Shown in pieces: positions 19,199 to 27,770 of a DNA stretch of 64,000 nt (positions are counted from its first letter, which is position 1; each line of letters begins with the position of its first letter). The DNA lies in assembly GCA_025150425.1 (NCBI GenBank), contig CP102281.1, positions 1,178,001 through 1,242,000 of the forward strand, given 5' to 3'. This DNA comes from [Eubacterium] siraeum. Lineage in GTDB: Bacteria; Bacillota; Clostridia; Oscillospirales; Ruminococcaceae. The position numbers and the translations under genes were made by a program. Below the pieces are notes generated by a model. That model ran no database searches, was not told where the DNA came from, and worked only from the letters and a program-made list of their open reading frames with translations.

Positions 19199-21511
19199 TT
19201 GTTTAAAATATTCGGGTATCTCAAAAACAGCATACCGCAGGTTTTGCTGATAATTGTACTGCTTATAATTCAGGCCTGGGGCGACCTTACTTTACCGCAA
19301 TATACATCGGATATTGTGGATATAGGTATACAGAACGGCGGTATAGAAAATGCGGCGGCAGATGCGCTGAGCGTTGACGGCTATAATGCGCTTGAAGCGT
19401 TTATGAATGACGAGCAGAAAAGCATACTTGCAAAAAGCTATACTCTTGTGAAAAAAGGCGAAGCGACCGATTCTCAGAAAGAACGCTTTCCCTGGTCTGC
19501 CGATAATGACGTTTATTTTCTGAATGAACTTACGGAAGATGAAAAACAACAGCTCATTAACACTGTCGATATACCTATGACGGCGGCTGAGATGATGAAA
19601 GAGCTTTCCTTTGAAGATTTGTCATCTATGACCGAAAAGCAGGGGATTAAACTTCCTTTTACTTCTTTTGAACAGGCAGGAGAAATGCTCGGTATTTCTT
19701 CCGGAAAAGCAAATGCACTGACGATTATTACGGCACTTGCGGAAAAAGGCGGCATGGGAGATACCGATTTGTCGGCATTGTCTGACAAAATATCGGAAAT
19801 GCCGGGAACTATAACAGAGCAGTCCGCAGTACGCTTTGTAAAAGACGAATATTTATCGCTGGGCGTTGATATGAACGTATTACAGCAGAACTATCTGCTG
19901 TCAGCCGGCGGAAAAATGCTGCTTATCGCACTTCTTATGATGGCGGTATCCGTGACGGTAGGTTTCTTTGCGGCGACAACAGCGGCGAAGGTCGGCAGAG
20001 ATCTAAGAGCCGGAGTGTTCAGAAATGTTGTCAGCTTTTCAAGCGCCGAGATTGACAGATTTTCCACTGCCAGCCTTATCACGAGAAGCACGAACGATAT
20101 ACAGCAGATACAGATGGTTATTGTAATGCTGCTCAGAATGGTTATATATGCGCCTATTCTCGGCATTGGCGGTGTATTTATGGTACTGACTACCGGTACG
20201 GGTATGGCGTGGATTATCGCCCTTGCCGTAATTGTTATTCTTGCGGTGGTGCTTATTCTGATGAAGATTGCGATGCCTAAATTCAAGCTGATGCAGAAAC
20301 TGGTTGATAAGCTGAACCTTGTTGCAAGGGAGATACTTACCGGTCTGCCTGTTATCCGTGCCTTCAGCCGTGAAAAATATGAAGAAGAACGTTTCGATAA
20401 AGCCAATAAGGATCTGACATCCGCAATGCTCTTCACAAACCGCACAATGACGTTTATGATGCCTCTTATGATGATGATAATGAACCTTGTAACCGTTCTT
20501 ATCATATGGGTAGGTGCAGGACAGATTTCGGACGGCTCTTTGCAGGTCGGAGATATGATGGCGTTTATCACATATACGATGCAGATTGTAATGTCATTCC
20601 TTATGCTGACAATGATTTCAATAATGCTTCCGAGAGCGGCAGTTTCCGCAGAGAGAATAAACGAAGTCATTTCAGCCGAAAAGAGCATTACTGATAAGCC
20701 CGATGCAGCAACATTCGATAAAGCGTCGCTCAGGGGCGATGTTACTTTTGATCACGTTTCGTTCCGCTATCCCGATGCAAATGAAGATGTTCTGACCGAT
20801 ATATGCTTTACCGCAAATGCGGGTGAAACGACAGCTGTTATCGGCAGTACGGGCAGCGGCAAATCAACGCTTATAAATCTCATACCGAGATTCTTTGACG
20901 TTACCGAAGGCAGTATTACTATAGACGGAACCGACATCAGAGATGTAACACAGCATTCTCTCCATGACGTTACAGGCCTTGTGTCGCAGAAAGGCGTACT
21001 GTTCTCTGGAACGATAGACAGCAATATAAGATTCGGTGCTGAAAATGCCGATGATGAAACTATCCGACTTGCCGCAGAGATTTCGCAATCGTCTGAATTT
21101 ATCGACAGCAAGCCGCTAAAATACAACGAGCCTGTTTCACAGGGCGGCACGAATGTTTCGGGCGGACAGAAACAGCGTCTGTCTATTGCCCGTGCAATTG
21201 CCAAAAAGCCTAAGATATATCTGTTTGACGACAGCTTCTCAGCACTTGATTTCAAGACAGATGTGAAGCTGAGAAAAGCACTCGCCGATAATATTCACGA
21301 TTGCACGATAATAATCGTTGCACAGCGTATCAGCACGATATTGAATGCCGACAAAATAGTTGTGCTTGACGAGGGCAGAATAGCAGGAATCGGAACTCAT
21401 AGCGAGCTTATGGAAAATTGTGAGGTATACAGGCAGATAGCACACTCGCAATTGTCGCAAAAAGACCTTGCGGCGATAGATAACGCAAAAGGGGGTGCTG
21501 TAAATGCGTAA
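19199..21511 (+). CDS. ABC exporter half-transporter, degenerate-site subunit, with large extracytoplasmic insert
   Basis: Membrane and ATPase domains fused, 770 residues, much longer than the usual 570-620. Between the first membrane segment (residues 13-30) and the second (about 238-262) lies a soluble insert of some 190 residues, predicted to be outside the cell. The ATPase domain has Walker A GSTGSGKST, signature VSGGQKQR and Walker B ending in DD (LFDDSFSALD), where the catalytic Glu is Asp. This marks it as the subunit that forms the degenerate site in a heterodimer such as TM287/288 or LmrCD. TTG start after AAAGGGAG; it overlaps the partner gene by 8 bases. Confidence 0.92.
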   Translation: MFKIFGYLKNSIPQVLLIIVLLIIQAWGDLTLPQYTSDIVDIGIQNGGIENAAADALSVDGYNALEAFMNDEQKSILAKSYTLVKKGEATDSQKERFPWSADNDVYFLNELTEDEKQQLINTVDIPMTAAEMMKELSFEDLSSMTEKQGIKLPFTSFEQAGEMLGISSGKANALTIITALAEKGGMGDTDLSALSDKISEMPGTITEQSAVRFVKDEYLSLGVDMNVLQQNYLLSAGGKMLLIALLMMAVSVTVGFFAATTAAKVGRDLRAGVFRNVVSFSSAEIDRFSTASLITRSTNDIQQIQMVIVMLLRMVIYAPILGIGGVFMVLTTGTGMAWIIALAVIVILAVVLILMKIAMPKFKLMQKLVDKLNLVAREILTGLPVIRAFSREKYEEERFDKANKDLTSAMLFTNRTMTFMMPLMMMIMNLVTVLIIWVGAGQISDGSLQVGDMMAFITYTMQIVMSFLMLTMISIMLPRAAVSAERINEVISAEKSITDKPDAATFDKASLRGDVTFDHVSFRYPDANEDVLTDICFTANAGETTAVIGSTGSGKSTLINLIPRFFDVTEGSITIDGTDIRDVTQHSLHDVTGLVSQKGVLFSGTIDSNIRFGAENADDETIRLAAEISQSSEFIDSKPLKYNEPVSQGGTNVSGGQKQRLSIARAIAKKPKIYLFDDSFSALDFKTDVKLRKALADNIHDCTIIIVAQRISTILNADKIVVLDEGRIAGIGTHSELMENCEVYRQIAHSQLSQKDLAAIDNAKGGAVNA

Positions 21512-23348
21512 TTCTCACAGAGGAGGACCCGGCGCTCCTGTAGAAAAGGCAAAGGATTTCAAGGGCAGTATCGGAAAACTGGCAAGGTATATGAGCGAAT
21601 ATAAGATTTCGCTTGTTTTCGTTGTGATATTCGCAATTACATCAACCGTATTCAATATTATCGGTCCTAAGCTGATGGGTAATGCCACAACGGAGATTTT
21701 CAACGGCATTATCGCAAAGGTAAACGGTACGGGCGACATGAACTTTGATGCGCTCGGCGCTATACTTCTATTGCTTATAGGATTTTATCTTATCAGCAGT
21801 ATCTGTTCGTTTATACAGGGCTGGCTGATGACGGGCGTTTCACAGAAGGTCAGCTACAGACTCCGTAAGGAGCTTATCGCAAAGATAAACCGTATGCCGA
21901 TGAACTATTTTGACAAAAGCACGCACGGTGAGGCACTGTCAAGAGTAACAAATGATGTGGATACTTTGGCACAGAATCTGAATCAGAGCATTACACAGCT
22001 TGTCACCTCTGTTACCACTATCATAGGTGTAATGGTAATGATGCTGTCGATAAGCCCGCTTATGACGCTTATCGCCGTTCTTATTCTTCCTGTTTCGATG
22101 GTGCTTGTGCTTTTCGTTGTAAAGATTTCTCAGAAGTATTTCAAGTCGCAACAGGAGTATCTCGGTCACATAAACGGACAGGTCGAGGAAATCTACAGCG
22201 GTCACAATATTGTCAAGGCGTTCAACCGTGAGGAACGTGTTATCGAAGATTTTAACGAGGCAAATGATATTTTATATAAGTCTGCGTGGAAGTCGCAGTT
22301 TTTCTCCGGTGTTATGATGCCTGTTATGACCTTTGTGGGAAATCTGGGATACGTTGCCGTTGCTGTTGTCGGAGGTTTACTGGCGGCAAACGGAACTATA
22401 ATGGTCGGCGATATATTATCGTTTATCCAGTACGTCAAGAACTTCACACAGCCTATAACACAGCTGGCACAGGTATCAAGTATGCTTCAGTCGACCGCCG
22501 CAGCCGCCGAGAGAGTATTTGAATTCCTGGCAGAGGACGAAGAAGAGCAATGTGCAAAGGAACACGCAATGCTTACCGATACCTCAGGCAATACCAGAAA
22601 TGTAACAACGCTTGATATTACCGGTGATGTAACGTTTGAACACGTTCGTTTCGGCTACACCCCCGAAAAGATAATAATCAATGATTTCAGTGCAAGGGTC
22701 AGACAGGGACAGAAGATAGCTATAGTCGGACCTACCGGAGCAGGAAAAACAACCATTGTCAAACTGCTTATGCGTTTCTATGAGCTTAACGGCGGAAGGA
22801 TACTTATTGACGGGTATGACATAGCAGACTTCGACAGGAGCGAGCTTAGAGAGCTTTTCGGAATGGTGCTTCAGGATACATGGCTGTTCAAGGGCAGTAT
22901 TATGGAGAATATCCGATACGGAAAGCTTGATGCGACAGATGATGAAGTTATTGCCGCCGCAAAAGCGGCTCACGTTGACCATTTCATAAGGACGCTTCCC
23001 GGCGGTTATGATATGGAGTTAAACGAGGAAGCATCCAACGTATCGCAGGGTCAGAAACAGCTTCTGACAATAGCAAGAGCGATTCTTGCAAATAACAAGA
23101 TACTGATTCTTGACGAGGCTACAAGCTCGGTCGATACCCGTACCGAGATACAGATACAAAAGGCTATGGATAATCTTATGAAAGGCAGAACAAGCTTTGT
23201 AATAGCACATCGCCTGTCTACGATAAAAGATGCCGACCTTATACTCGTTCTTAAGGACGGAGATATTATCGAGCAGGGTAACCACGAGGAACTTATTGCA
23301 AAGAACGGTTTCTATGCCGAGCTTTATAATTCACAGTTTGACAGCTGA
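21504..23348 (+). CDS. ABC exporter half-transporter, catalytic subunit
   Basis: A 614-residue partner of the preceding half-transporter. Six membrane segments (about residues 30-330) are followed by an ATPase domain with Walker A GPTGAGKTT, signature VSQGQKQL (SQGQ in place of SGGQ) and Walker B LILDEATSSVD with the catalytic Glu intact. An exporter of drugs, peptides or lipids is the family expectation; the substrate is unknown. The 8-base overlap and GGGGGTG ribosome site inside the upstream gene favour equal synthesis. A terminator follows. Confidence 0.93.
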   Translation: MRNSHRGGPGAPVEKAKDFKGSIGKLARYMSEYKISLVFVVIFAITSTVFNIIGPKLMGNATTEIFNGIIAKVNGTGDMNFDALGAILLLLIGFYLISSICSFIQGWLMTGVSQKVSYRLRKELIAKINRMPMNYFDKSTHGEALSRVTNDVDTLAQNLNQSITQLVTSVTTIIGVMVMMLSISPLMTLIAVLILPVSMVLVLFVVKISQKYFKSQQEYLGHINGQVEEIYSGHNIVKAFNREERVIEDFNEANDILYKSAWKSQFFSGVMMPVMTFVGNLGYVAVAVVGGLLAANGTIMVGDILSFIQYVKNFTQPITQLAQVSSMLQSTAAAAERVFEFLAEDEEEQCAKEHAMLTDTSGNTRNVTTLDITGDVTFEHVRFGYTPEKIIINDFSARVRQGQKIAIVGPTGAGKTTIVKLLMRFYELNGGRILIDGYDIADFDRSELRELFGMVLQDTWLFKGSIMENIRYGKLDATDDEVIAAAKAAHVDHFIRTLPGGYDMELNEEASNVSQGQKQLLTIARAILANNKILILDEATSSVDTRTEIQIQKAMDNLMKGRTSFVIAHRLSTIKDADLILVLKDGDIIEQGNHEELIAKNGFYAELYNSQFDS

Positions 23349-23381: not shown

Positions 23382-23425
23382 GCAAAGGTGCAAAGCAGAA
23401 ATGTTTTGTGCCTTTTGCTTTTTGC
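23382..23425 (+). terminator. Intrinsic terminator of ABC cassette 1
   Basis: GCAAAGGTGCAAA pairs with TTTTGTGCCTTTTGC (one bulge, two G-T pairs) followed by CTTTTTG. Confidence 0.7.
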
Positions 23426-23527: not shown

Positions 23528-23556
23528 TTGACAATGAATTTAAAAGGGAATATACT
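23528..23556 (+). promoter_or_regulatory. Sigma-A promoter for the aspartoacylase-like pair
   Basis: A perfect TTGACA (23528-23533), a 17-bp spacer and TATACT (23551-23556). Its position shows that in-frame start codons further upstream (from 23513) are not used and supports the TTG start at 23588. Confidence 0.85.
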
Positions 23557-23587: not shown

Positions 23588-24520
23588 TTGTTACAGGACG
23601 TTGTATCCGTTTCACTCCCTGTGAATGAGCGGATGATGATAAAAAAGAATCATTTTGAGCCGTACAACCTTACAGGTAACGAAAAGCGTATATGTATAGT
23701 TACAGGTATTCACGGCGATGAACTGGAAGGGCAGTACGTTTGCTATGAACTGATAAGAAAGCTCAGCGAAAACAGGCATTTGCTCAGCGGTATAGTTGAT
23801 ATATATCCGTCTATGAATCCGCTCGGAATGGATTCGATAAAGCGTGAGATGCCGATATTTGACCTTGATATGAATATGATATTTCCGGGCTCGGAAACCG
23901 GTGCGGTGGCTGAGCATATTGCCGCCGCTATCATGAACGATATAAAGGGTGCGGATATATGTATTGACATTCACGCAAGCAATATATTCCTGCGTGAAAT
24001 TCCGCAGGTGCGTATTTCGGAAGAAACTGCGCCGAAGCTGTTGCCCTATGCCAAAATGCTGAATGTTGACTTTATATGGGTACACTCCAGCGTCACTGTT
24101 ATGGAGGCTACTCTCTCGCACAGCCTTAACAAAGAGGGAACACCGACACTTGTTGCTGAAATGGGTGTTGGAATGCGTATAACCAAGTCTTACGGCGATC
24201 AGCTCCTTGACGGAATATTCAACCTGATGGCTGAGATGGGAATATGGACAGGTGAAACGAAGAAGGTTTCTCATCCTATTGTTTCTACAGACGGAAACGT
24301 ATCGTTCATATATTCGGATACATCCGGTATTTTTATGCCCGCAATAAAGCACTGGGCAGGAATATCCAAGGGAGATCATATAGGCGATATACTAGATCCG
24401 CTTTCGGGTGCTGTCGAACAGGAAATATTCGCACCTTGCAGCGGTATTGTATTTACGTTGCGTGAGTACCCCGTTGTATATGAAGGCTCGTTGCTTGCAA
24501 GAATACTCGGAGGGTGCTGA
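23588..24520 (+). CDS. Succinylglutamate desuccinylase/aspartoacylase-family zinc enzyme, active-site complete
   Basis: A 310-residue cytoplasmic M14-like deacylase. The start is the TTG at 23588, 6 bases after CGGAGGT. Zinc ligands are His42 and Glu45 (GIHGDE) and His129 (DIHAS); the probable general base is Glu191 (LVAEMG). Substrate-anchoring residues in the NP...R region and FPG near residue 100 are present. The C-terminal beta domain ends in the family's ILDPLSG and IFAPCSGIVFTL strands. Known relatives remove acyl groups from acyl-amino acids such as N-acetylaspartate or N-succinylglutamate; the substrate here is unknown. A diverged copy starts 1 base downstream. Confidence 0.88.
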   Translation: MLQDVVSVSLPVNERMMIKKNHFEPYNLTGNEKRICIVTGIHGDELEGQYVCYELIRKLSENRHLLSGIVDIYPSMNPLGMDSIKREMPIFDLDMNMIFPGSETGAVAEHIAAAIMNDIKGADICIDIHASNIFLREIPQVRISEETAPKLLPYAKMLNVDFIWVHSSVTVMEATLSHSLNKEGTPTLVAEMGVGMRITKSYGDQLLDGIFNLMAEMGIWTGETKKVSHPIVSTDGNVSFIYSDTSGIFMPAIKHWAGISKGDHIGDILDPLSGAVEQEIFAPCSGIVFTLREYPVVYEGSLLARILGGC

Positions 24521-24521
24521 A

Positions 24522-25457
24522 ATGAATAAAGAAAACATAGTTACATTGAAATCGCCTTACCGTGATGATTTTCAGATAAACGGATACAGATTCGGTAAGG
24601 GTGAAAAAACCTGTTGTATAGTCGGTGCAATGCGTGGCAACGAGGTCCAGCAGTTATATGTATGCTCACAGATCATAAGAGCCCTTTCAAATATTGAAAA
24701 GAAGGGCGATCTGGTTTACGGTAAGCAGATAATGGTCATCCCTTCGCTGAATCCGTTTTCGATGAATATCCAGCGCCGTTTCTGGTCGGTAGATAATACA
24801 GATCTCAACAGAATGTTCCCCGGTGACGCACACGGAAAGACCACACAGAGAATAGCCGCGGGCATATTCGATTTTATAAAGGAATATCAGTACGGCATTC
24901 AGTTTACTTCATTCTATATTTCCGGTGACTTTATACCTCATGTAAGAATGATGGATACCGAGCATAAAAACATAGGACTTGCAAATTTATTCGGTCTTCC
25001 GTATATACTTCTCAGAAAGCCAAAGCCGTTTGACACGGCAACGCTGAACTTCAACTGGCAGAACTGTGATACGAGCGCATTTTCCGTATATACAAACGAA
25101 ACAGAGCATATTGACGAAGAATCGGCAAATATAGCGGTAAGCGCTGTACTTCGTTTTTTGTCGAGAATGGGCGTCATAAAGTATCAGAGCCACGGCGGTT
25201 ATATGGCAACTACGCTTGAAGAAGAGCATCTGATGTCGGTACACGCTAAAAGCGGCGGAATATACCGCAGGATAAAACAGCCCGGCGACGAGGTGGAGCA
25301 GGGAGATGTAATGGCAGAGATACTCGATCCGTTTGAAGGCACGGTCAAGGAAGAAATCAAGTCGCCCGCAAACGGAATTGTATTCTTTGCGCATAAATCA
25401 CCGCTCGTACTTGAAAACTCGGTCGTTTATAAGATAATCAAAAGATTGCATATCTGA
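24522..25457 (+). CDS. Aspartoacylase-like paralog lacking zinc ligands (probable pseudoenzyme)
   Basis: A 311-residue paralog of the preceding gene, aligning over its whole length with almost the same residue numbering. The structural motifs remain (SLNPFSMN, LNRMFPGD at 95-102, ILDPFEGTVKEE, SPANGIVFF), but the active site has gone: Arg38 replaces the first zinc His, Thr129 the third zinc ligand, and Tyr190 stands where the catalytic Glu would be; only Glu41 is kept. The start at ATG 24522 follows GGAGGGTG. The frame is intact and the hydrophobic pattern preserved, so it is not a decaying gene. A regulatory or structural partner of the active copy is the likely role (inference). Confidence 0.85.
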   Translation: MNKENIVTLKSPYRDDFQINGYRFGKGEKTCCIVGAMRGNEVQQLYVCSQIIRALSNIEKKGDLVYGKQIMVIPSLNPFSMNIQRRFWSVDNTDLNRMFPGDAHGKTTQRIAAGIFDFIKEYQYGIQFTSFYISGDFIPHVRMMDTEHKNIGLANLFGLPYILLRKPKPFDTATLNFNWQNCDTSAFSVYTNETEHIDEESANIAVSAVLRFLSRMGVIKYQSHGGYMATTLEEEHLMSVHAKSGGIYRRIKQPGDEVEQGDVMAEILDPFEGTVKEEIKSPANGIVFFAHKSPLVLENSVVYKIIKRLHI

Positions 25458-25494: not shown

Positions 25495-25532
25495 GAGCCA
25501 TACAGAGTAGGTATTCTCTGTATGGCTCTTTT
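25495..25532 (+). terminator. Intrinsic terminator of the aspartoacylase-like pair
   Basis: A 13-bp perfect stem (GAGCCATACAGAG with CTCTGTATGGCTC), 8-nt loop, then TTTT. Confidence 0.9.
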
Positions 25533-25917: not shown

Positions 25918-26586
25918 TTAACCTTGACGGTTACTGTCCGGATTTGCCGCACCGCAGTTTGAACAGAATTTCTGTCCTGCGGAATTTTTGTTTCCGCATA
26001 CGCAGTACCACTCGCTGTTTTGAGAAACGTTGCTTGTCGGCTGAGCTGCCGCTTCTGTATTGCTCTGTGCGTAAGTCTGATAATTCTGCTGAGGACTGCT
26101 GCAGTTATAGTAGCCGTTCTGAAAAGAAGTATTGCAGTTATTGTAACCGGGCATATTATATGCCTGACTGCGTGCCGCCGTATTTGCCGCTGCGGCTGCC
26201 GTAAGCGTTTTGTCGGCCATTGTTTTGAAGCCGATAACGGTAGCGAATATGCCGAAAGCGGCTATAAGAATGCACACTATCATTGAAACTACAAATACCG
26301 CATTAACAACGGAAATAGCAAAATCCATCGCTTCATTTGCCGTTGCAAAATCCTCAAAATCAAGTTCTCCGCTTGCAATAGCGTCATAAAGCATCTGCCT
26401 GAAAGCGTCGCCTCCGAAAATACCGTTCATAACACCGAGAGAAACAACGCCTGTCAGCTCGAAGAATGTGATTACCGCTGTAATTATTGTTGTTACAGTT
26501 ATGCCTGTACGGCTGTTTGTCATCGGCTCCTGCTTATATCTGGAGCAGAGAACAAGCACAATTATAGAAAGCGCTATAAGTACCAA
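25918..26586 (-). CDS. Membrane protein with C-terminal zinc ribbon (third of three paralogs)
   Basis: A 222-residue protein of unknown function. Membrane segments lie at about residues 1-14, 28-50 and 92-118; a low-complexity linker rich in Asn, Gln, Tyr, Ala and Ser (about 130-190) leads to a zinc ribbon with cysteines in YCVCGNKNSAGQKFCSNCGA (CxC...CxxC). The probable start is a TTG at 26586 behind AAGGAG; an ATG closer to the ribosome site is out of frame. Last gene of a minus-strand operon with two shorter relatives upstream; followed by a terminator. Confidence 0.75.
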   Translation of the reverse strand: MVLIALSIIVLVLCSRYKQEPMTNSRTGITVTTIITAVITFFELTGVVSLGVMNGIFGGDAFRQMLYDAIASGELDFEDFATANEAMDFAISVVNAVFVVSMIVCILIAAFGIFATVIGFKTMADKTLTAAAAANTAARSQAYNMPGYNNCNTSFQNGYYNCSSPQQNYQTYAQSNTEAAAQPTSNVSQNSEWYCVCGNKNSAGQKFCSNCGAANPDSNRQG

Positions 26587-26609
26587 TTTGCATATCTCCT
26601 TTGAAGAAT

Positions 26610-27113
26610 TTATCTTATATGTCCGCAGTAAATACAGAATTTGTTGTCAGATTCGTTGTACTTACCACAGCTTGTACACTGCCATGCGGTATTTTCGGTT
26701 GTAAAGCTCTGCTGAACATTTGCGGCAGATTGTGCGTGGTATATCTGCTGTGCTCTTGCGGCGTTTACTCTCTGCTGTTCGCTGTAAGCCGCAGAGGTGA
26801 GCTCATTGTTGCTCATACACTTGTATCCCTTGATACAGGCGATGACACTCAGAGTGATAACGCCGCAGTAGTATATCACGGTTATTGCAAAGACACTTGA
26901 AGCGAACACTGACAGAATGGGGTAATATTTTTCGCTCTCCGAACCGTAATACATCGGTAATACGCCGAACAGAAACGACATCAGTTTAATTGATGCCAGA
27001 ACTGTCAGAATAATAGTCAGCACCTTGATTCCGGTAAGTTTTGAAACGATAGGACAACTCTTATAAGAACTGCATAAAACGAGTAAAGCAATAGCAATAC
27101 CTATATGGAGCAT
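26610..27113 (-). CDS. Membrane protein with C-terminal zinc ribbon (second of three paralogs)
   Basis: A 167-residue protein with an N-terminal hydrophobic segment, two further membrane segments (about residues 27-50 and 68-95) and a zinc ribbon at the very end (WQCTSCGKYNESDNKFCIYC). It shares with its neighbours the LVLCSSYK-type opening followed by a short loop with GI.V, the segment order and the ribbon spacing, so it arose by tandem duplication. ATG with GGAGG upstream. Function unknown. Confidence 0.77.
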   Translation of the reverse strand: MLHIGIAIALLVLCSSYKSCPIVSKLTGIKVLTIILTVLASIKLMSFLFGVLPMYYGSESEKYYPILSVFASSVFAITVIYYCGVITLSVIACIKGYKCMSNNELTSAAYSEQQRVNAARAQQIYHAQSAANVQQSFTTENTAWQCTSCGKYNESDNKFCIYCGHIR

Positions 27114-27125
27114 ACAAGTCCCTCC

Positions 27126-27770
27126 TTACTGACCGTTAGCGTTGCCGGAAGGCGCATTGTATTTTGGTGCGCCGCACTGCGAACAGAAATCTCCGCCTAT
27201 ATCCTTGTTTATTGTACCGCAAACGTTACATTTCCACGTGTTGCACTGAGGCTGCTGCATCTGCTGGGGCGGAACTGCGAAGCCTGCTCTGTACTGCTGC
27301 TGTAATGCGGCCGCTTTATCAAAGGCTTTCTTTTTAAGCTCTTTGTCAGAAAGCGTTGTATATCCTACAATACACATTATAATTCCCGCAATGACCGTTG
27401 CGATTATAACGATATAGTATGACACATATATTGCATATTCGCTTGTTCCCGGTACAAAGGAAGTGAAATTGTAGCTTGTGAAATAGTCGTAAGGGTTGCA
27501 AAGAAGCCTGAAAAAGTCAATCTTGAACAGCAGAAGAATTGAATCGAATACAGTAAGCAATACCGTTATTGCAGTAAGCGATTTTCTCTTGCCGAGCGTG
27601 GGATTTTTTCTGTATTTGGCAGTTATAATAAGCACTGTTATTATAAAAACAACAACTGCCAGATAAAAAATAAATCCGTCAAACAGACTGGACAACAATT
27701 TGTCTGTGGTCGAATTGAAATTTTCTGTGTCATTCAGAAATCGGCTTGCAGATGTAAGTAAATTGATCAT
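27126..27770 (-). CDS. Membrane protein with C-terminal zinc ribbon (first of three paralogs)
   Basis: A 214-residue protein with a longer N-terminus before the first membrane segment (about residues 30-50), then segments near 65-90 and 115-140. A TLSDKELKKKAFDKAAA stretch precedes a Gln-rich linker and a zinc ribbon (WKCNVCGTINKDIGGDFCSQ, then CG). The matching piece in the other two copies is MADKTLT or MSNNELT. ATG start after AAGGAGG. First gene of the operon, read from a promoter shared divergently with galE. Function unknown. Confidence 0.77.
   Translation of the reverse strand: MINLLTSASRFLNDTENFNSTTDKLLSSLFDGFIFYLAVVVFIITVLIITAKYRKNPTLGKRKSLTAITVLLTVFDSILLLFKIDFFRLLCNPYDYFTSYNFTSFVPGTSEYAIYVSYYIVIIATVIAGIIMCIVGYTTLSDKELKKKAFDKAAALQQQYRAGFAVPPQQMQQPQCNTWKCNVCGTINKDIGGDFCSQCGAPKYNAPSGNANGQ

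What the first reader, a model, noticed from the sequence alone, without database searches (positions are those of the whole stretch)
23588..25457. Tandem aspartoacylase-like genes: an intact enzyme paired with an active-site-dead copy
Two adjacent genes, 1 bp apart under one promoter, encode full-length paralogs of 310 and 311 residues with nearly identical numbering. The first has His42, Glu45, His129 and Glu191; in the second these are Arg38, Glu41, Thr129 and Tyr190. The fold-defining motifs and reading frame are kept, which argues for selection on a non-catalytic role. An enzyme/pseudoenzyme heteromer, as in other metabolic pairs, is a plausible and possibly undescribed arrangement for this family.
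Basis: partly seen in the sequence, partly recalled or inferred. Interest (0 to 1): 0.72.

Follow-up and report, generated by a model that had tools for sequence, protein, structure and literature searches.

The report
Enzyme and zinc-less twin gene pair
Two neighbouring genes make a zinc-dependent amide-cutting enzyme and a sister protein that has lost its zinc site in a fixed, conserved way; in Clostridia the two are nearly always kept together, which suggests that they work as one unit whose substrate is still unknown.

Summary
Confirmed to the residue: gene A (23588-24520) keeps His42, Glu45, His129, Glu191; gene B (24522-25457), 25% identical, has Arg38, Glu41, Thr129, Tyr190. B is not decaying: in 136 distinct B sequences position 38 is always Arg, 129 never His, 190 never Glu; in 141 A sequences the four residues are invariant (one is truncated before two of them). 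Median dN/dS is 0.04 for B, 0.06 for A. In evenly drawn genome samples A and B fall in the same genomes (order: 23 and 22 of 295, the 23rd with a B remnant; class: the same 10 of 291). Of 80 named B loci 70 have A just upstream; the genomes of the other 10 hold A elsewhere, 9 of them as a split pair. New: in 36 of the 70, A-B follows a circularly permuted ATP-grasp, Alpha-E and transglutaminase, the trio of the Anbu-peptidase operon. The window's genome has no such ATP-grasp. Best reading: an obligate enzyme/pseudoenzyme unit, probably a heteromer, that hydrolyses an amide or isopeptide and takes the peptidase place where the trio is present. Physical contact and substrate are inferred, not shown.

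The parts
23528..23556 (+). candidate sigma-70 promoter (TTGACA-17-TATACT)
   Evidence: 11 of 12 matches; hit count in the region no higher than in shuffles
23588..24520 (+). gene A: AstE/AspA-type zinc amide hydrolase, His42, Glu45, His129 (predicted zinc ligands), Glu191 (predicted general base)
24522..25457 (+). gene B: zinc-less paralog; Arg38, Glu41, Thr129, Tyr190; keeps Arg86, Asn96, Arg97
25495..25528 (.). palindromic terminator-like hairpin behind the two-gene unit
   Evidence: listed on the - strand; on the + strand four T follow the stem

Best explanation
A and B are an obligate enzyme/pseudoenzyme unit. A is a zinc-dependent amide hydrolase of the AstE/AspA fold. B is an old sister that lost the zinc site once, before the pair spread through Clostridia, and rebuilt the pocket (Arg38 with Glu41 in the zinc place, Tyr190 in the place of the general base, Arg86/Asn96/Arg97 kept). 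It most likely binds A, made next to it from an overlapping or abutting gene, and contributes substrate recognition or regulation, as the zinc-less subunit does in M16B heterodimers. Where the ATP-grasp/Alpha-E/transglutaminase trio is present, A/B stands in the place of the Anbu peptidase and would hydrolyse the amide or isopeptide bonds that this amidoligase system makes. Shown: sequence state, selection, pairing, gene order. Inferred: physical complex, role of the B pocket, substrate.
For: Both carry the PF24827 fold. Active-site residues are invariant in A and invariantly replaced in B (141 and 136 distinct sequences; B R38 also 58 of 58 among loci not fetched by a pattern that contains it). 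In one FastTree run B is a clade of its own (support 1.0, with three fragments) and A plus B separate from the other family members (0.933). B's old active-site segments are more conserved than the rest of its catalytic domain (mean entropy 0.77 vs 1.39, p 1.7e-6) and 11 columns are at least 95% fixed to different residues in A and B. dN/dS A 0.062, B 0.041. Class sample: the same 10 of 291 genomes for A and B; order sample: 23 A and 22 B of 295, B always with A. 70 of 80 named B loci have A just upstream, 40 of 70 with a 4-base overlap. The 10 genomes whose fetched B stood alone (9) or at a contig start (1) all hold a full-length A elsewhere (13 handles, 3 of them linked controls). Unlinked A and unlinked B each form a pure 12-member clade; 11 genomes hold both. 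Trio upstream in 36 of 70; 17 of 18 genomes with CP_ATPgrasp_2 in the order sample carry A.
Against: No complex was modelled or measured. Co-retention in related genomes counts inheritance as well as need. G088 has an intact A, a 47-residue remnant of B, a shortened ATP-grasp and no Alpha-E match, so A can outlast B at least briefly. G187 has an unlinked A without unlinked B, G498 the reverse (both also hold a linked pair). The link to the amidoligase is not general: no ATP-grasp in the window's genome or in five sampled congeners with the pair, and no full-length one in 23 of 26 named genomes tested whose pair lacks the complete adjacent trio. For the model system, a study of the Anbu operon saw no stable complex between Anbu and its operon partners and no peptidase activity of Anbu (passages of PMC6376114). 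My active-site segments were chosen after seeing the alignment.
Confidence: 0.6

Rival explanations
1. B is a separate protein with a new job in the same pathway (ligand sensor, carrier or a non-zinc enzyme built on Arg38, Glu41, Asp91, His140) and does not bind A. The genes stay together because the pathway needs both.
For: B has fully invariant residues of its own (R14, R38, E41, Q44, C48, E59, N82, W88, D91, D94, N96, R97, S130, H140, F157, T174, F212: 136 of 136), more than a plain scaffold would seem to need. The unlinked clades still keep both genes, which needs a shared pathway but not contact.
Against: The most common arrangement is a 4-base overlap (40 of 70), which is usual for co-made subunits (recalled) though not proof. 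B keeps the length of A throughout (aligned full-length B 307-319 aa); its fold was predicted for the window's B only.
Confidence: 0.27
2. A is an ordinary AstE/AspA-type catabolic deacylase or dipeptidase, and B is a tolerated paralog with little effect.
For: A matches DoeB and CphZ folds closely. AstE/AspA proteins of another class stand alone in several relatives.
Against: B is at least as constrained as A, with a conserved remodelled pocket. In the order and class samples only one of 33 A-bearing entries lacks an intact B (a few genomes are in both samples).
Confidence: 0.1
3. B is a decaying duplicate of A.
For: Loss of two zinc ligands and the general base. Two genomes do show a broken B (G088, G096).
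Against: dN/dS 0.04; the same replacements in 136 of 136; 122 linked pairs with mean pairwise identity 58% in A and 57.5% in B. In G096 A and the transglutaminase are broken too.
Confidence: 0.01

Closest known systems
DoeB/EutE (N-acetyl-diaminobutyrate deacetylase, 6twl/6twm) and other AstE/AspA-type zinc hydrolases (PF24827)
   Different: A scores 56.5 bits against the DoeB cut-off of 402.7, 19% identity; substrate not known; no zinc-less partner for this family was found in the sources searched
CphZ cyanophycin dipeptide hydrolase (8ein/8eip)
   Different: 14-16% identity; no cyanophycin gene among the recurrent neighbours that were annotated; specificity untested
Anbu operon (ATP-grasp, Alpha-E, transglutaminase, Anbu peptidase)
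   Same: The same three partner families precede A-B in 36 of 70 linked pairs
   Different: The hydrolase place holds an AstE/AspA pair instead of the Ntn-fold Anbu; A/B also exists without the trio, as in the window
M16B tandem heterodimers (MPP alpha/beta, SPH2681/SPH2682, AlbE/AlbF)
   Same: Works like: paired paralogs, one with the zinc motif and one without (passages of PMC12731061)
   Different: Unrelated fold and family; the heteromer is proven there and inferred here
M14 pseudopeptidases AEBP1, CPXM2, CPD-III
   Same: Related carboxypeptidase fold; the catalytic Glu is also replaced by Tyr (table seen in PMC11266112)
   Different: Animal proteins, not encoded in an operon with an active paralog (recalled)

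Membership tests
AstE/AspA catalytic family (PF24827), for A | domain match above cut-off | tested here: met
   79.2 bits, cut-off 25
AstE/AspA catalytic family (PF24827), for A | His, Glu, His zinc ligands and catalytic Glu | tested here: met
   H42, E45, H129, E191
AstE/AspA catalytic family (PF24827), for B | domain match and fold | tested here: met
AstE/AspA catalytic family (PF24827), for B | zinc ligands and catalytic Glu (catalytic membership) | tested here: not met
   R38, T129, Y190 instead of H, H, E; 136 of 136 without them. B is a homolog, not a zinc enzyme of the family
DoeB, AstE, PRK02259 aspartoacylase equivalogs | curated NCBIfam score | tested here: not met
   best 56.5 of 402.7 required (A), 39.2 (B)
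Anbu-type amidoligase operon | CP ATP-grasp + Alpha-E + transglutaminase next to the hydrolase | tested here: inconclusive
   met in 36 of 70 linked pairs elsewhere; not met in the window: no PF14403 in the genome, and no transglutaminase or Alpha-E profile match within 1.5 kb of the pair
Anbu-type amidoligase operon | Anbu (Ntn hydrolase) itself | not tested
   no search for Anbu was made; apart from A/B and the trio no gene cluster recurs in more than 16 of the 80 named loci
CphZ cyanophycin dipeptide hydrolase | activity on beta-Asp-Arg | not testable with these tools
   fold match only
M16B heterodimeric peptidase | HXXEH motif and M16 fold | tested here: not met
   no M16 model among the Pfam matches of A or B
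Enzyme/pseudoenzyme heteromer (general kind) | physical complex | not testable with these tools
   no complex prediction available

The most novel reading that the evidence does not exclude
A/B is the clostridial counterpart of the Anbu peptidase: a heteromeric isopeptidase in which the zinc-less B, with its rebuilt pocket (R38-E41, D91, H140, Y190), recognises the amide-linked product of the ATP-grasp/Alpha-E/transglutaminase system and presents it to A. Genomes such as the window's, with A/B but no such ATP-grasp, would then act on the product made by neighbours or by another ligase.
Probability: 0.28. Interest if true: 0.82.

Novelty: new variant of a known kind. Interest (0 to 1): 0.62.

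Why it matters
Active/inactive paralog pairs are known in M16 peptidases and other enzymes, but none was found for the aspartoacylase family in the searches made (no paper each; a 2024 review of metallopeptidase pseudoenzymes has no hit for aspartoacylase or succinylglutamate). It offers a handle on the Anbu-type ATP-grasp/Alpha-E/transglutaminase system: one structural paper says that the hypotheses on its role are not confirmed, another that its substrates and interactors are still to be found (passages of PMC6376114 and PMC5666114). If A/B is its hydrolase in Clostridia, the product of that system could be trapped by deleting A or B. It also means that a name such as 'succinylglutamate desuccinylase/aspartoacylase' would mislead for B.

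Tried and rejected
Complementary half-sites: in the window A has Met97 where B keeps Arg97, which suggested that each supplies what the other lacks. Rejected as general: A has Arg97 in 128 of 141 (7 Lys, 5 Met, 1 Ser).

B alone as counter-evidence: nine B loci and one at a contig start lack an adjacent A. All ten genomes hold an A elsewhere, so this became support.

Window genus as a trio-less genus: first assumed because all six sampled members with the pair lack PF14403. Corrected: 11 of 30 genus loci with A (L001, L003-L031) have the transglutaminase just upstream, and G038 and G053 hold both a trio-type and a window-type A.

Anti-phage defence: no PADLOC match for A, B or one example of each trio protein. 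Ectoine (DoeB) and arginine (AstE) degradation by NCBIfam: far below cut-offs. Cyanophycin: a 2023 paper says the isoaspartyl dipeptidase of Firmicutes remains undiscovered (passage of PMC10206079); no cyanophycin gene was among the neighbours annotated, but no genome search for it was made, so this stays open.

B outside the class: a phylum sample of 244 genomes gave a full B score only in the own genome; the other 15 genomes with matches score at most 55 bits.

Neighbours in pairs without the trio (DUF1062, DUF3877, helicase, pentapeptide and DegV proteins) recur in at most 7 of 80 loci each and gave no lead. A complex prediction and coordinates of the models were not available. Iyer et al. 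2009, cited by the Anbu papers for the trio, is not held, so I cannot exclude that it mentions an AstE/AspA pair. The last two paper searches served the M16 comparison and a trio query; one search returned mostly unrelated papers.

Dropped rows: one search collapsed 410 A/B records to 277 distinct ones and left out 34 shorter or low-scoring ones (fragments and other family members, listed). In one search, 112 of 148 pairs were dropped for dS above 1.5 or below 0.05. One search was given 25 of the 31 linked loci without any trio gene plus L085 (Alpha-E match only); L059-L062, L081 and L121 were left out.

Full report
Observation. A (23588-24520, 310 aa) starts with TTG seven bases behind GGAGG; B (24522-25457, 311 aa) starts one base after the A stop. 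Both match PF24827 AstE_AspA_cat (79.2 and 55.4 bits, cut-off 25) and are 25% identical. The aligned active-site residues are H42/R38, E45/E41, H129/T129 and E191/Y190. Solved relatives align these A positions with their own HG.E, DLH and TEFGG-type motifs. That these are the zinc ligands and general base is recalled family knowledge, in line with the M14 table seen. The pair is the only PF24827 content of the complete genome. A promoter-like TTGACA-17-TATACT lies at 23528-23556 and a palindromic terminator-like hairpin at 25495-25528.

B is conserved as a zinc-less protein. From all loci held at that point, 141 distinct A and 136 distinct B sequences were aligned. A: H42, E45, H129 and E191 in all, except one A truncated at its start that still shows H129 and E191. 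B: R38 and E41 136 of 136; position 129 is A 93, T 31, P 9, S 2, V 1; position 190 is Y 130, F 6. One of the two patterns that fetched the named loci contains R38, so the count was split: loci found without it give R38 58 of 58, no His at 129 and no Glu at 190. R86 (132 of 136), N96 and R97 (136 of 136) are kept in B. Other B residues are fixed in all 136, among them W88, D91, C48, E59, N82, H140 and T174. The segments around the old active site are more conserved in B than the rest of its catalytic domain (entropy 0.77 vs 1.39; p 1.7e-6; segments chosen by me after seeing the alignment), and 11 of 296 columns are at least 95% fixed to different residues in A and B, against 14 fixed to the same residue. 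This is a remade pocket, not erosion.

Origin. In a FastTree run with the other family members fetched, B forms one clade (support 1.0, with three B fragments), A another (with seven A fragments, 0.998), and A plus B separate from the rest (0.933). The simplest reading is one old duplication and one loss of the zinc site. This is a single, quickly made tree.

Selection. Nei-Gojobori dN/dS over linked pairs with B identity of 80-98% and dS between 0.05 and 1.5 in both genes (36 of 148 pairs): median 0.062 for A, 0.041 for B. Window against its nearest relative L021: A 0.025/1.13, B 0.026/1.18. The pairs are not independent.

Pairing. Genus: 28 of 71 genomes have A, 27 of them B; the exception, G069, has an A that runs to a contig end. 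Order sample (295): A at 400 bits or more in 23 genomes, B in 22 of the same genomes (in G460 split over two contigs), and G088 with a B fragment. Class sample (291): the same 10 genomes for A and B. The two samples share a few genomes. Phylum sample (244): a full B score only in the window's genome. In 80 named loci fetched by B, 70 have A directly upstream on the same strand; the offset is -4 in 40 of 70, and all 70 lie between -23 and +64.

The split pairs are telling. In a group of genomes whose records are titled Oscillospiraceae, Ruminococcaceae or Clostridia bacterium, and in G163 and G492 of the window's family, A and B are unlinked. The unlinked A form a pure 12-member clade (support 0.885), in 12 of 12 next to a large FtsX/MacB-type permease and in 9 of 12 next to an iron-dependent-repressor-type gene. 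The unlinked B form a pure 12-member clade (0.911), in 11 of 12 behind an NYN/OST-HTH gene, in 8 with thymidylate synthase and in 5 with an aminoacyl-tRNA editing domain gene (family names from one representative each). Eleven genomes hold both. G498 has only the unlinked B and G187 only the unlinked A, and both carry a linked pair too. Linkage is therefore not what keeps the two genes together, though common descent remains a part of it.

Counter-examples. G088 keeps A and the transglutaminase but has a 47-residue B remnant, a shortened ATP-grasp and no Alpha-E match. In G096 B falls into two pieces, A into three and the transglutaminase is shortened, that is, the genes are broken together.

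The operon. In 36 of 70 linked pairs three genes on the same strand precede A-B: circularly permuted ATP-grasp (PF14403/PF04174), Alpha-E (PF04168) and a bacterial transglutaminase (PF01841/PF08379); 3 more have one or two of them and 31 have none within 4.5 kb. These are the partners of the Anbu peptidase. Two structural papers describe that operon and the proposals of a peptide-synthesis or tagging system with Anbu as peptidase; one states that the hypotheses on its role are not confirmed and reports no complex of Anbu with its operon partners and no Anbu peptidase activity (passages read, PMC5666114, PMC6376114). The word aspartoacylase has no hit in either. In the order sample 17 of 18 genomes with CP_ATPgrasp_2 have A (the exception, G434, has a lower-scoring ATP-grasp). 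The six A genomes without it belong to the window's genus, the window included. That genus is mixed: 11 of 30 loci with A have the transglutaminase just upstream, 19 do not, and G038 and G053 carry both types. Of 26 named genomes tested without the complete adjacent trio, three have a full-length ATP-grasp elsewhere. So in the order sample the ATP-grasp rarely occurs without A/B, while A/B often occurs without the ATP-grasp: A/B looks like the core and the trio like an optional supplier.

Mechanism. A most likely hydrolyses an amide or isopeptide next to a carboxylate, as its relatives DoeB and CphZ do. B cannot bind zinc in the family's way; Arg38 probably pairs with Glu41 in the empty site, and the kept Arg86/Asn96/Arg97 could still hold a carboxylate. 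I infer that B binds A and supplies recognition or control, as the zinc-less subunit does in M16B heterodimers (passages of PMC12731061). The main rival is that B acts on the same pathway without touching A, as a sensor or a new enzyme.

Novelty. Searches of the held papers for this family with pseudoenzyme, inactive paralog, ATP-grasp or transglutaminase terms gave no paper, and a 2024 review of metallopeptidase pseudoenzymes has no hit for the family. Iyer et al. 2009 is not held, so prior mention cannot be excluded. The kind (active/inactive paralog pair) is known; its occurrence in this family and the operon link appear to be new.

Noticed in passing
window 19199-23345 (+): Two tandem ABC exporter half-transporters (PF00664 + PF00005) just upstream, separated from A by a terminator-like hairpin at 23384-23415.
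   Followed up: partly
window 25918-27770 (-): Three adjacent small proteins with C-terminal zinc-ribbon-like matches, mostly weak, possibly paralogs of each other.
   Followed up: no
L286 (G096:C24): B in two pieces, A in three, transglutaminase shortened: the genes are broken together in this genome.
   Followed up: partly
L281 (G088:C41:1-12000): Operon with an intact A and transglutaminase, a 47-residue B remnant, a shortened ATP-grasp and no Alpha-E match.
   Followed up: partly
L008/L031 (G038) and L017/L030 (G053): Two species of the window's genus carry both a window-type A without trio and a trio-type A with the transglutaminase upstream, which suggests two lineages of the pair in one genus.
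   Followed up: partly
L262-L279 (unlinked A clade): Unlinked A lies beside a large FtsX/MacB-type permease and its ATPase and, in 9 of 12, an iron-dependent-repressor-type gene; serS and parAB are near in several.
   Followed up: partly
L072, L102, L108, L128 (unlinked B clade): Unlinked B follows thymidylate synthase, an NYN/OST-HTH protein and an aminoacyl-tRNA editing domain protein.
   Followed up: partly
L118, L122, L123: In these Lacrimispora-type loci A-B is flanked by DUF1062 and DUF3877 proteins.
   Followed up: no
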